From NCBI GenBank assembly GCA_020630575.1, contig JAHDBD010000002.1, forward strand, positions 62,001-126,000: a stretch of DNA of 64,000 nt, read 5' to 3'. The notes under the pieces were generated by a model. It saw only the letters and a list, made by a program, of their open reading frames with translations. It was not told the origin of the DNA and ran no database searches. Source of the stretch: Bernardetia sp. (GTDB taxonomy: Bacteria; Bacteroidota; Bacteroidia; Cytophagales; Bernardetiaceae). This document shows, piece by piece, positions 31,571 through 34,048 of this stretch (the stretch's first letter is position 1; each line of letters opens with the position of its first letter). The translations under genes and the position numbers were made by a program.

Positions 31571-32017
31571 ATGACACAGAATACCAACACTAATTCATCT
31601 CCCACTATTCATACTGTATTCCAACAAACTTACTTTCATGGCACAAAAGCCAACTTACAAATTGGAGATTTAATCCAAGTTGGCTTTAACTCAAACTATG
31701 GAAAAAGAAAAAATGCAAAGTATATCTTTCTGACAGCAACACTAGATGCTGCTATTTGGGGTGCTGAACTTGCTGTAGGGGAAGGAAAAGAAAGAATTTA
31801 TTTAGTAGAACCAACAGGAGTTATTGAAGATGATCCAGATTTAACTGATAAAAAATTTGTAGGCAATCCAACAAAATCATATCGTTCAATACATCCATTT
31901 AAAGTTGTAGGCGAAGTTACAAGTTGGCAAGGACACCCAACAGAACAAGTAAAAGCCATGAAAGACGGATTAGCTAAACTTAAAGAACAAGGTATTGATT
32001 CTTTAAATGACCAATAA
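31571..32017 (+). CDS. arr: NAD+-dependent rifampin ADP-ribosyltransferase
   Basis: 148 residues, about the full length of Arr enzymes, which inactivate rifamycins by ADP-ribosylation. Hallmarks: YFHGTKANLQIGDLI with H23, KYIFLTATLDAAIWGAELA with Y51, RIYLVEPTGVIEDDPDLTDKKF and GNPTKSYRS. All key positions seem present, so the product should be active, but the substrate has not been shown here. The gene stands alone, 353 bp before an IS110 transposase. Imperfect ~55-bp direct repeats lie on either side (31382-31437 and 32050-32108), which suggests arrival or movement with IS-derived DNA. Confidence 0.88.
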   Translation: MTQNTNTNSSPTIHTVFQQTYFHGTKANLQIGDLIQVGFNSNYGKRKNAKYIFLTATLDAAIWGAELAVGEGKERIYLVEPTGVIEDDPDLTDKKFVGNPTKSYRSIHPFKVVGEVTSWQGHPTEQVKAMKDGLAKLKEQGIDSLNDQ

Positions 32018-32146
32018 GTTATATTCTTGTATTTAAAAAAGTGACTTTTTTAAGTTTGTAGATTTATGATTTAGAAGAAGAAAATTAGTTCTGTTCAATC
32101 ACGCTTCCTTTAGGTTTGTAATATATTAAATAGGTGTAATTTCTTA

Positions 32147-32341
32147 TCTTGTATTTAAGAATTCATCTAACAGATAAAGAACTTAAGACGCTTCTTGATT
32201 TATAAATCTATCCTCAGATTTAGTCTTTATCTGCCTTTATTCCATCTCAAACTTAGATAGTTTTCGCAGTATTTTTATTGAGCTAAAAATAAACTCATTA
32301 GTTAAGGTACTAAGTCTGATTGAATAGGATTAATCACTTTT
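32147..32341 (+). ncRNA. Candidate bridge RNA of the IS110 element
   Basis: This non-coding stretch before the transposase has two large stem-loops. The first pairs CAGATAAAGA (32171-32180) with TCTTTATCTG (32224-32233), with an inner AAATCT/AGATTT stem. The second pairs ACTTAG (32251-32256) with CTAAGT (32310-32315), with an inner TATTTTTA/TAAAAATA stem (32270-32291) and unpaired stretches on both sides. Short guide-like matches to the left flank, right flank, right end and left end occur in that order along it. IS110 elements are known to encode a bridge RNA in this position. Folding was by hand only. Confidence 0.4.
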
Positions 32342-32369
32342 AAATTAGCCACCCTAAATTAACTTTTTT

Positions 32370-33383
32370 ATGCCAACTTACCAAAATTTTATAGGTATTG
32401 ATGTTAGTAAAGACCATTTAGATATTGCTCTTTTTCAGGAAGGTAAATCAATAAAATCCGACCACATTGTCAATAGTTTAGAAGCTATAAAAGCCTATCT
32501 TTCTTCTTTTCAAAACCTGTATGAAATTAGAGAGAGTCTATTTTGTATGGAGCATACAGGTGTTTATATTAACTGGCTTTTGATTGCTTTAGGTGATTTT
32601 AACTGTTCCATTTGGGTAGAAAATGCCCTTGAAATAAAGCGTTCTGGAGGAGTTACAAGAGGTAAAAATGACAAAGTAGATGCTGAGCGTATTGCTATTT
32701 ATGCTTTCCGTTTTCAAGATAAAGTCAATCTATATTGTCCTGCTAGTGAACAATTAGAAGCCTTAAAAACACTTCAAACACTACGAAAAACGCTAGTTAA
32801 TCATAAACAAGAGTTAGAAACCTATGTGAATGAACAAAGCCAATTTAGTAAAACTTCTATTCAAAAATTACTTAAAGAAAATTCTAAAACTACTTTAGAA
32901 CATTTGACAGAAAGGATAAAAGAGCTTGAAGAAAAAATGATTCAAATTATAAAAGAAGACCCACAACTCAAAGAATTATATCGGCTCACTATTTCTGTAA
33001 CAGGAGTAGGAAAAGTAACTGCCATTCAATTGTTGATAGTTACAGAGGGATTTACCAAGTTTGATACAGCGAAACAATTAGCTTGTTACTGTGGAGTTGT
33101 TCCCTTTGAAAACTCTTCTGGAAAATTCAAAGGAAAAGCTAGAGTATCAAAAATGGCTAACAAAGCACTTAAAACAACCTTGTATATGTGTGCTTTATCA
33201 GCTTTACGAGTGAAAGGAGAATTAAGAACTTATTATTTAAGAAAAGTAGCAGAAGGCAAGAACAAAATGAGTGTCATTAATGCCTTACGCAATAAAATTA
33301 TTCAACATATTTTTGCTTGTGTAAAAAACAAAATTTTATACGATAGAAAGGGAATAGATTTTAACAATTTTTCTAAAGGTTAG
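32370..33383 (+). CDS. IS110-family transposase (DEDD recombinase)
   Basis: 337 residues, the usual IS110 length. The N-terminal RuvC-like domain has the DEDD residues D11 (FIGIDVSKDH), E61 (CMEHTGVY), D101 and D104 (KNDKVDAERIA). A helical coiled-coil region spans ~120-200. The C-terminal Tnp domain has the helix-hairpin-helix TGVGKVTAIQLL and the serine motif ENSSGKFKGKARVSKMANK with candidate catalytic S249-S250. The frame is intact, so the enzyme should be functional. In this family the long non-coding leader makes the guide RNA that pairs donor and target DNA. Confidence 0.95.
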   Translation: MPTYQNFIGIDVSKDHLDIALFQEGKSIKSDHIVNSLEAIKAYLSSFQNLYEIRESLFCMEHTGVYINWLLIALGDFNCSIWVENALEIKRSGGVTRGKNDKVDAERIAIYAFRFQDKVNLYCPASEQLEALKTLQTLRKTLVNHKQELETYVNEQSQFSKTSIQKLLKENSKTTLEHLTERIKELEEKMIQIIKEDPQLKELYRLTISVTGVGKVTAIQLLIVTEGFTKFDTAKQLACYCGVVPFENSSGKFKGKARVSKMANKALKTTLYMCALSALRVKGELRTYYLRKVAEGKNKMSVINALRNKIIQHIFACVKNKILYDRKGIDFNNFSKG

Positions 33384-33418
33384 ATTTGGTTTTACCATAG
33401 TTTTCTGAAGAAGCGACA

Positions 33419-33520: not shown

Positions 33521-33601
33521 GTATTCAAATGAATACTAAGTAGGATAGAATTGGATAAATTCTTAAAAATAGAACTAATATCAATTCATAATGTCTTAAA
33601 A

Positions 33602-33690
33602 ATGTAGCCGACAATACACCGCTCAACCATCTACCCTTGCTGCCTTCCGACCCTGGGGGAGTTCAACAGGAGCTAGTCACGCCGACCACG
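33602..33690 (-). ncRNA. ffs: Signal recognition particle RNA (small bacterial type), copy 1
   Basis: The minus strand contains the universal SRP domain IV: AGGGTCGGAAGGCAGCAAGG with its GGAA tetraloop and flanking asymmetric loop, preceded by GACTAGCTCCTGTTGAAC and followed by GTAGATGGTTGAGCGGTG. The ends pair as GTGGTCGGC with GTCGGCTAC (9 pairs including G-U). TTG at 33721-33723 (complement), 19 bp and TACCTTTG (33694-33701 complement) form a Bacteroidota promoter that puts the start near 33690. A T-run follows the 3' end. SRP RNA binds Ffh and targets membrane proteins. A second copy lies 325 bp away. Confidence 0.92.
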
Positions 33691-33693
33691 ATG

Positions 33694-33902: not shown

Positions 33903-33926
33903 AATGTCTTCTATTTTCATAAGAAA

Positions 33927-34015
33927 ATGTAGCCAGCAATACACCGCTCAACCATCTACCCTTGCTGCCTTCCGACCCTGGGGGAGTTCAACAGGAGCTA
34001 GTCACGCTGACTACG
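33927..34015 (-). ncRNA. ffs: Signal recognition particle RNA (small bacterial type), copy 2
   Basis: Same length as copy 1 with four substitutions, all in the terminal helix, which reads GTAGTCAGC paired with GCTGGCTAC. One helix position is a double compensatory change (G-C in copy 1, A-U here), and two others switch G-U to A-U or G-C. The whole SRP54-binding domain is identical. The promoter has TTG (34046-34048 complement), 19 bp and TACCTTTG (34019-34026 complement). The preserved pairing argues that both genes are functional. A 66-codon plus-strand frame over this RNA is not a gene. Confidence 0.92.
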
Positions 34016-34018
34016 ATG

Positions 34019-34048
34019 CAAAGGTACGAATCTTTTTCAGACATGCAA
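34019..34048 (-). promoter_or_regulatory. Promoter of SRP RNA copy 2
   Basis: Minus-strand TTG-N19-TACCTTTG, same spacing as for copy 1 with an unrelated spacer, so the conserved hexamers are under selection. Confidence 0.75.

What the first reader, a model, noticed from the sequence alone, without database searches (positions are those of the whole stretch)
32025..33415. IS110 element with a candidate bridge RNA whose guides match both ends and both flanks
The region before the transposase folds by hand into two nested stem-loops. Four short matches run along it in the order expected for left-target, right-target, left-donor and right-donor guides. (1) TCTTGTATTTAA at 32147-32158 is identical to the left flank 32025-32036. 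(2) CGCTTCTT at 32189-32196 is the reverse complement of AAGAAGCG at 33408-33415, the right flank. (3) ATAGTTTTC at 32257-32265 is identical to the right end 33397-33405. (4) TCACTTTT at 32334-32341 is the reverse complement of AAAAGTGA at 32037-32044, the left end. Each match alone could be chance in AT-rich DNA; their joint order and orientation is what makes it notable. Bridge RNAs are known for IS110, so the novelty is this element and its target. Weak points are an unresolved core dinucleotide, and the right-target match sits on the 5' side of my hand-drawn loop.
Basis: partly seen in the sequence, partly recalled or inferred. Interest (0 to 1): 0.75.

Follow-up and report, generated by a model that had tools for sequence, protein, structure and literature searches.

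The report
RNA-guided jumping gene with one-letter core
This is a small mobile DNA element whose own guide RNA spells out both the site it jumps into and its own ends; its relatives suggest that the usual two-letter crossover sequence can shrink to one shared letter, which would loosen a known limit of RNA-guided DNA insertion.

Summary
The element is real: an intact IS110-type insertion sequence (transposase 32370-33383) with a predicted bridge RNA upstream. Of the four matches, (3), the left-donor guide, stands; (2) is really the left-target guide; (1) and (4) are coincidences.

Corrected guides: LTG 32186-32194, RTG 32212-32217, LDG 32257-32265, RDG 32297-32307, placed as in IS621, with a covarying target-loop stem. 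The target spelled by LTG+RTG occurs exactly five times in this genome (reversed control 0), in REP-like inverted repeats.

Sixty elements with both ends (this one included) share the layout. Two features differ from IS621. (a) Donor and target share C at position 9 but differ at position 8 in 53 of 60. RTG base 8 pairs the donor (54 of 56; target 9 of 56); RDG base 8 pairs the target (42 of 45 distinct, wobble included). The RNA thus seems written for the post-exchange 'handshake' state at position 8. (b) Joined ends resemble a Bacteroidota -33/-7 promoter. Independent evolutionary events behind the RDG rule are few, this element's own handshake pairs are poor, and nothing was tested at the bench.

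The parts
32108..33405 (+). IS110-group insertion sequence, 1298 bp; C at 32107 is the base shared with the target
   Evidence: Copies start at 32107 (L002, L003, L006, L007 in the same genome) and end at 33405 (L004); 12 left and 16 right junctions in the genus listed; uninterrupted paralogous site L008 has a single C between the flanks
32370..33383 (+). Transposase/recombinase, 337 aa, DEDD RuvC-like domain plus Tnp_20 domain with catalytic serine
   Evidence: PF01548 and PF02371 above cut-off, NF033542 181.3 bits vs cut-off 140; D11, E61, D101, D104, S250 fall on IS621 D11, E60, D102, D105, S241 in the PDB-chain alignment (an offset of two in the chain numbering is inferred; IS621 residues from PMC11208158)
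32099..32107 (+). Left target (LT) TCACGCTTC, position 9 = C
   Evidence: Matches LTG at 7 of 9 positions; ATCACGCTTC|TGAGGA recurs in the genus
33406..33411 (+). Right target (RT) TGAAGA, following C9 at 33405
   Evidence: Pairs with RTG CCTCAG at 4 of 5 positions 10-14
33385..33388 (+). -33 box TTTG of the promoter formed when RE and LE join in the circle
   Evidence: Spacer 20 bp to the -7 box in the joined ends; TTG at this exact place in 31 of 31 right ends found without requiring it
32111..32118 (+). -7 box TAGGTTTG (Bacteroidota consensus TAnnTTTG) in the left end
   Evidence: TAnnTTTG at this place in 27 of 37 left ends, but 34 of them were located by a motif that forces most of that box; 31 of 42 covariance-model matches start exactly at CCTTTA, a stretch the model itself contains. 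Consensus from PMC7366714
32131..32169 (+). Bridge RNA 5' stem-loop (inner stem 32141-32146 / 32156-32161)
   Evidence: RNAalifold consensus; the inner stem never varies, so covariation neither supports nor refutes it
32171..32179 (+). Target-binding loop, outer stem 5' arm CAGATAAAG
   Evidence: 4 of 9 pairs change on both sides, 97.2% of cells paired
32186..32194 (+). Left target guide (LTG) AGACGCTTC
   Evidence: Own left flank 7 of 9; wider set 0 of 20000 permutations
32197..32208 (+). Target-binding loop terminal hairpin GATTTATAAATC
   Evidence: Pairs in 87.5% of cells, no covariation
32212..32217 (+). Right target guide (RTG) CCTCAG, positions 14 to 9
   Evidence: Own right flank 4 of 5 at positions 10-14; wider set 0 of 20000 permutations
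32218..32220 (+). Handshake guide of the target loop (ATT; positions 8, 7, 6, read against the donor)
   Evidence: A8 pairs donor T8; positions 7-6 do not pair this element's TTTT donor but pair the AAAT donor of most relatives
32225..32233 (+). Target-binding loop, outer stem 3' arm CTTTATCTG
   Evidence: See 5' arm
32238..32246 (+). Donor-binding loop, outer stem 5' arm TATTCCATC (3' arm 32318-32326)
   Evidence: 98.4% of cells paired, nearly invariant; one pair of this arm is broken in the window copy
32257..32265 (+). Left donor guide (LDG) ATAGTTTTC
   Evidence: Identical to the right end 33397-33405; changes with it in L042 (ATAGAATTC in both) and across distant relatives
33397..33405 (+). 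Left donor (LD), right end of the element, ATAGTTTTC
32270..32291 (+). Donor-binding loop inner hairpin TATTTTTA/TAAAAATA
   Evidence: 2 of 8 pairs change on both sides, 93.8% of cells paired
32297..32307 (+). Right donor guide (RDG) ATTA(GTT)AAGG, proposed to pair discontiguously with CCTT-TA of the left end
   Evidence: Read from the sequence; AAGG found in 56 of 60 elements; discontiguous RDG also reported for IS621 (PMC11208160 section 7)
32308..32310 (+). Handshake guide of the donor loop (TAC; positions 8, 7, 6, read against the target)
   Evidence: In this element only A7 pairs target T7; in the wider set position 8 pairs the target in 42 of 45 distinct elements, wobble included

Best explanation
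An intact IS110-group insertion sequence. Shown by sequence comparison: ends at 32107/33405; an IS621-like DEDD-Ser recombinase; a leader with 5' stem-loop, target loop and donor loop whose guides fit target and donor on the IS621 strands. Inferred: after excision the joined ends make a Bacteroidota-type promoter (-33 TTTG, 20 bp, -7 TAGGTTTG) that transcribes the bridge RNA from about 32124; the RNA-recombinase complex holds the donor junction ATAGTTTT-C-CTTTAGG and a REP-like target ACGCTT-C-TGAGGA; top strands are cut after the shared C (position 9) and exchanged. In this group RTG position 8 is written for the incoming donor strand and RDG position 8 for the incoming target strand, so donor and target need share only C9. 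Integration leaves the target's base 8 at the left junction and the donor's at the right.
For: Copies and ends. Protein. RNA: RNAalifold recovers the three-part fold; 96.1% of cells paired vs at most 52.0% when slid, 6 pairs with both sides changed; the covariance model has 40 matches at E <= 0.01 over 94 relative loci, all on the transposase strand just upstream of it. Guides: genus LTG vs own flank 198 of 200000 permutations (10 copies); wider set LTG 0 of 20000 (37 elements), RTG 0 of 20000 (30 elements); LDG equals the right end and varies with it. Target: LTG+RTG joined (ACGCTTCTGAGGA) occurs exactly 5 times in the window's genome and 14 times with up to 1 mismatch, reversed control 0; the sites shown mostly lie in inverted repeats. 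Core: C follows the 8-base donor match in 28 of 29 right ends found without requiring it. Position 8: RTG8 pairs donor 54 of 56, target 9 of 56; RDG8 pairs target 42 of 45 distinct (24 Watson-Crick) vs permuted 27.0 +- 2.5, 0 of 5000, and its own donor Watson-Crick in 4 of 45. Position 7: RTG7 is A in 7 of 10 T7-donor elements and 0 of 46 others (Fisher 5e-7 ignoring kinship). Promoter.
Against: Three of 11 genus copies do not fit their own left flank (L002 5/9, L040 2/9, L044 4/9), and 16 of 60 in the larger set score below 7 of 9. This element's own handshake pairs are poor (only A8 on the target-loop side, only A7 on the donor-loop side). Tree-based contrasts for RDG8 vs target 8 are few and none is significant: purine/pyrimidine 3.6 same, 0 opposite of 6 (p 0.125); for target G vs RDG T 2.6 same, 0.3 opposite of 7. 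So the permutation figures overstate independence. RDG7 pairs the target Watson-Crick in 17 of 45 but its own donor in 15 of 45, RDG6 the target in 7 and the donor in 30, which the handshake model does not predict. Of five pair measures one (further pair types) does not exceed shuffles (471 of 500). The single window leader folds no better than shuffles (z -0.69). No RNA reads, circle or activity seen.
Confidence: 0.83

Rival explanations
1. Ordinary IS621-like element with a shared dinucleotide core (here TC); the mismatch at position 8 in relatives is tolerated noise and the 'ATT' after the RTG is a fixed structural part of the loop.
For: In the window element target and donor both have T8-C9. 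ATT is constant in most relatives. Phylogenetically independent contrasts are few and not significant. IS621 itself tolerates GT, AT and TT cores (PMC11208158, passage).
Against: Position 8 differs in 53 of 60 elements. ATT is replaced by AAT, AAA, AAC or CAA in 7 of the 10 elements whose donor position 7 is T, among them the one whose donor position 8 is G (RTG8 = C, L210), and A never stands at RTG7 in the other 46. RDG8 takes all four bases and mostly pairs the target.
Confidence: 0.22
2. One reading: left end at 32037, LTG at 32147-32158, RTG at 32189-32196, RDG at 32334-32341.
For: The letter matches exist; the 12-nt match is reached in only 3 of 300 shuffles.
Against: Four other copies in this genome start at 32107 and 11 of 12 left junctions in the genus start with the same letters; the proposed LTG is the same in 7 of 8 aligned leaders although the flanks differ.
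Confidence: 0.01
3. A relic: the element is no longer mobile and the guide matches are historical.
For: Only one full-length transposase in the assembly; this copy's guides have mismatches to its own flanks and weak handshake pairs; many end fragments in the genus.
Against: Open reading frame and catalytic residues intact; further copies in the same genome run into contig ends, as expected for repeats (L002, L003, L004).
Confidence: 0.15

Closest known systems
IS621 (E. coli IS110 group; PDB 8wt6; Durrant 2024 PMC11208160, Hiraizumi 2024 PMC11208158)
   Same: Bridge RNA in the left end with 5' stem-loop, target loop and donor loop; LTG/LDG match the top strand, RTG/RDG its complement; discontiguous RDG; REP-type targets; circle-junction promoter; same catalytic residues.
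   Different: IS621 uses a CT core shared by donor and target, T9 almost invariant; its handshake guides are at positions 6-7 and the shared core re-pairs with the incoming strand. Here C9 is the only base shared as a rule, base 8 is free in the target and base 8 of RTG and RDG fits the other DNA. The junction promoter looks Bacteroidota-type, not sigma70. Protein only distantly related (79.7 bits).
ISEc21 and seekRNA elements (Siddiquee 2024, PMC11187229; passages seen only)
   Same: Upstream non-coding RNA with two target-matching stretches; circle with junction promoter; natural reprogramming reported.
   Different: Handshake pairing is not mentioned in the passages seen; different hosts.
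ISCro4 (PDB 9t56)
   Same: Best PDB sequence match, 79.9 bits.
   Different: Not examined further; no paper on it read.
TIGR-Tas (NF052498)
   Same: Weak match over residues 131-294.
   Different: 51.6 bits, below the cut-off of 100; no TIGR array was looked for.

Membership tests
IS110 family, IS110 group | DEDD RuvC-like domain plus Tnp_20 domain with catalytic serine | tested here: met
IS110 family, IS110 group | Long non-coding left end (262 bp) and short right end (22 bp after the stop) | tested here: met
   criterion from PMC11208160 section 12
IS110 family, IS110 group | Bridge RNA with target and donor internal loops | tested here: met
   transcription itself not tested
IS110 family, IS110 group | LTG and RTG fit the insertion site, LDG the right end | tested here: met
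IS110 family, IS110 group | RDG fits the left end | tested here: inconclusive
   AAGG in 56 of 60 but the left end it should pair with hardly varies, so no covariation test was possible
IS110 family, IS110 group | Circular intermediate with junction promoter | not testable with these tools
   Promoter-like boxes at the joined ends found; the circle itself needs DNA
IS621-type CT-core elements | Core dinucleotide CT shared by target and donor | tested here: not met
   Window shares TC; 53 of 60 elements differ at position 8; position 9 is C
IS1111 group | Bridge/seek RNA in a long right end | tested here: not met
   RNA lies in the left end; right end is 22 bp
IS1111 group | Sub-terminal inverted repeats of 7-17 bp | not tested
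   No dedicated search was made
TIGR-Tas | Tas protein above model cut-off | tested here: not met
   51.6 bits vs cut-off 100

The most novel reading that the evidence does not exclude
In a large group of IS110 elements (Bacteroidota wherever the record names the host; taxonomy recalled), the 'core dinucleotide' is really one base. Position 8 is a handshake position: the target-loop guide is pre-written for the donor's base 8 and the donor-loop guide for the target's base 8, so that the RNA encodes the recombined product rather than the substrates. Any target base 8 could then be used without changing the donor.
Probability: 0.62. Interest if true: 0.65.

Novelty: new variant of a known kind. 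Interest (0 to 1): 0.5.

Why it matters
The element itself is one more IS110. The comparison it opens is more useful. In IS621 donor and target carry the same CT core, so cognate and cross-strand reading of position 8 cannot be told apart; in the published core tests the first core base was changed in both DNAs together with all four guide positions (passage). Here donor and target differ at position 8 by nature, and the RNA appears to settle the difference in favour of the post-exchange pairs. That is natural support for the handshake model from outside IS621, and suggests a way round the fixed core that limits bridge-RNA targeting. The published boundary search took the core to be a repeated sequence and gave preference to CT (passage), so elements of this type could have been mis-bounded there (inference). 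The promoter boxes at the joined ends would help to locate more of them.

Tried and rejected
Rfam at gathering thresholds: no bridge-RNA match in the window, only two small SRP RNAs. Folding of the single leader: not better than shuffles. A CC or CT dinucleotide core was my first reading; rejected because left junctions carry CC (11 of 12) and right junctions C followed by T, A or G. CCTAAA at 32353-32358 as RDG: dropped, outside the donor loop and not kept in L002. Position 6 of the RDG as handshake: no signal. Fused-target count for Spirosoma telluris (13-mer taken from L163): 42 sites with up to 1 mismatch vs 10 for the reversed control, 4 exact; weak because the genome is GC-rich. Viral contigs: 3 relatives, not pursued.

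Selections that shape the counts. Of the 43 loci aligned, L142 had no ORF by my rule; of the other 42, 8 lacked the left-end motif and are absent, and 6 lacked an acceptable right end and served for left-flank tests only. One search used 37 elements on the left (34 of these plus three of the genus); 30 had a right flank long enough. Searches required C after the donor match; searches did not. One search required G in the RTG opposite C9; 114 loci with a transposase ORF gave 64 elements with both ends, 60 with both flanks, some of them several copies in one genome; that set required TTG before the right end, so the -33 claim rests's 31 right ends found without it. RTG statistics use the 56 of 60 with score 4 or more, RDG statistics the 56 of 60 with AAGG, 45 after removing duplicates. 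LTG position 8 equals the target base in 42 of 44, but the guide was chosen as the best match to the same flank, so this number is biased. In one search the regular expression missed L122, L040 and L043 and took a wrong stretch in L013.

Full report
1. What is there. The ORF at 32370-33383 is an IS110 recombinase (PF01548, PF02371; NF033542 above cut-off). Sequence search of the PDB finds IS621 and ISCro4 only (E up to 0.001); D11, E61, D101, D104 and S250 align with the IS621 catalytic residues. Two of the same-order genomes have contigs of the same length as a Microscillaceae MAG and Runella aurantiaca, with the match at the same place, so the order is probably Cytophagales (inference). The element sits 90 bp behind an intact rifampin ADP-ribosyltransferase gene.

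2. The ends. BLAST of the region against the same genome gives four other copies (L002, L003, L006, L007) that begin at window 32107 and one (L004) that ends at 33405. In the genus I listed 12 left junctions, 11 starting CCTTTAGG (the twelfth, L045, CTTTTAGG), and 16 right junctions, 15 ending in C (L055 ends TTTTT), 14 of them ATAGTTTTC or ATAGAATTC. A paralogous uninterrupted site, L008, reads ACGCTTCTGAGGAAGCG, against ACGCTT|C..element..C|TGAAGAAGCG in the window: one C is shared.

3. The RNA. Eight leaders of the genus were aligned (A2). RNAalifold draws a 5' stem-loop, a target loop and a donor loop, with 7 of 54 pairs kept through changes on both sides. For my five-helix structure 96.1% of cells pair, against at most 52.0% when partners are slid; 6 pairs change on both sides (8 of 500 shuffles reach that), 4 of them in the target-loop stem; the number of further pair types does not exceed shuffles. 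The 5' and donor-loop outer stems hardly vary and so are not tested by covariation. A covariance model from A2 gives 40 matches at E <= 0.01 over 94 relative loci, all on the transposase strand just upstream of it; 56 at E <= 1, of which a few are short or elsewhere. Some of the 94 loci are the same record fetched twice.

4. The guides. In the genus, 9-nt LTGs against own left flanks give 7-8 of 9 for W, L043, L003, L042, L041, L006 and L007, but 5, 2 and 4 of 9 for L002, L040 and L044. With L046 left out, 198 of 200000 permutations reach the observed sum. In the wider set, LTG against own left flank scores 282 vs 231.4 +- 4.6 for permuted flanks (37 elements), and RTG positions 10-14 score 135.5 vs 98.0 +- 3.7 (30 elements); 0 of 20000 permutations reach either. 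LDG equals the right end and changes with it: TTTTC in the window, AATTC in L042, ATAGAAAT, ATGGAAAT, ATAGATAT, TTAGAAAT or CTAACATT elsewhere.

5. The target. Joining LTG and RTG gives ACGCTTC+TGAGGA. I wrote this pattern after seeing L008, so it is not fully blind. It occurs exactly 5 times in the window's genome and 14 times with up to 1 mismatch; the reversed control occurs 0 times. All 6 genomes of the genus have at least two matches with up to 1 mismatch (2 in the poorest, G002, whose control also has 2). Most of the sites shown lie in inverted repeats such as CTTCCTCAGAAGCG...CGCTTCTGAGGAAG, i.e. REP-like; IS621 too goes into REP elements (PMC11208160, passages).

6. Position 8 and the handshake. 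Hiraizumi et al. (PMC11208158, sections 11 and 12 read) showed for IS621 that after top-strand exchange the target loop pairs with donor positions 6-7 and the donor loop with target positions 6-7, while the CT core, the same in both DNAs, pairs anew with the incoming strand. In the 60 elements target base 8 is G 24, A 15, C 15, T 6, while donor base 8 is T 59, G 1; they differ in 53. RTG position 8 pairs Watson-Crick with the donor in 54 of 56 and with the target in 9 of 56 (45 and 9 of 47 distinct). RDG position 8 pairs with the target in 42 of 45 distinct elements, 24 Watson-Crick and 18 wobble, against 27.0 +- 2.5 permuted (0 of 5000); it pairs Watson-Crick with its own donor in 4 of 45. 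An earlier set of 39 gave 35 pairing, 0 of 20000. At position 7 the RTG base is A in 7 of 10 elements with donor T7 and in none of the 46 others (Fisher 5e-7 ignoring kinship); the RDG base pairs the target Watson-Crick in 17 of 45 vs 8.9 +- 2.0 permuted, but also its own donor in 15. Position 6 of the RDG shows nothing for the target (7 of 45) and pairs the donor in 30 of 45. The simplest reading is a one-base core (C9), with position 8 handled as a handshake position.

7. Limits. Related elements are not independent. On a quick tree of 60 transposases target base 8 changes 16 times and RDG8 6 times; for pyrimidine vs purine, independent pairs give 3.6 same, 0 opposite of 6, p 0.125; single-base contrasts give 2 of 3 (C/G), 1.4 of 3 (T/A), 1.0 of 7 (A/T) and 2.6 of 7 with 0.3 opposite (G/T); donor 7 vs RTG7 gives 2.6 of 3, 0 opposite. 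An earlier 37-row tree gave 2 same, 0 opposite of 3. So the RDG8 rule is consistent but not proven by independent events; the RTG8 rule is firmer, because target base 8 changes often while RTG8 stays with the donor. That C9 is shared was a condition of the larger sets; without it, C follows the donor match in 28 of 29 right ends (L160 the exception). The window element pairs poorly at the handshake positions itself: A8 with donor T8, A7 with target T7, nothing else.

8. The promoter. Joined ends read TTTG, 20 bp, TAGGTTTG, the -33/-7 layout of Bacteroidota (TTTG / TAnnTTTG; PMC7366714 and PMC2483708, passages seen; a spacing of about 20 bp is recalled). TTG ends 17 bases before the junction in 31 of 31 right ends located without requiring it; full TTTG in 7. 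Left ends of the wider set were located by a motif containing most of the -7 box, so that box counts for less there; in the genus it appeared without being sought. Promoters re-formed at circle junctions are known for the family (PMC11208160, PMC11187229, passages).

9. Literature. Of PMC11208160 I read sections 6, 7 and 12 and passages, of PMC11208158 sections 11 and 12 and passages, of PMC11187229 passages only. Searches for 'bridge RNA' with 'handshake' (1 paper, PMC11208158), with 'Bacteroid' and 'IS110' (1 review, listing only), and with 'IS110', 'core' and 'target' (13 papers, 12 listed, listing only) brought up no other account of position-8 handshake pairing or a one-base core in what I saw. 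Most subscription papers and bioRxiv are outside that library, and no supplements were read.

10. Verdict. Observation partly confirmed; the IS110/bridge RNA reading is right, its left end and three of four guide assignments are not. As a single element it is ordinary. As an entry into a group with a reduced core it is a new variant of a known kind.

Noticed in passing
window 33598-33692 and 33926-34020, - strand: Two very similar small SRP RNA genes in tandem, about 330 bp apart, right after the element (Rfam RF00169 and RF04183; the copies printed differ at few positions once shifted by two, by eye).
   Followed up: partly
window 31571-32017: Intact rifampin ADP-ribosyltransferase (arr) gene directly upstream of the element.
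   Followed up: no
L044 / L011 (G001:C1:4336268-4337585): Copy whose donor guide is split by a 22-nt insertion and whose target guides do not fit its own flanks; its predicted right target (TGGGGA) resembles the flank of another right end, L056, in the same genome. Looks like a recombinant.
   Followed up: partly
L041 (G001:C1:379202-379411): Left-end fragment of about 208 bp with the same palindromic sequence on both sides in inverted orientation (TCACTCGGCAAAGCCAAG ... CTTGGCTCTGCCGAGTGA).
   Followed up: no
L052, L055, L057, L060, L062, L063: Isolated right-end stubs of 26-61 bp in the genus; no transposase match is listed at these places. Possible products of abortive recombination or decay.
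   Followed up: no
16 right junctions and the 60 elements: Target position 10 is never C in the 16 genus junctions although donor position 10 is C; in the wider set it is C in 13 of 60.
   Followed up: partly
L210 (G372:C6): The only one of 60 elements with donor base 8 = G; its RTG base 8 is C instead of A, and its RDG base 8 is C (target G). A natural test case for position 8, though donor and target agree there.
   Followed up: partly
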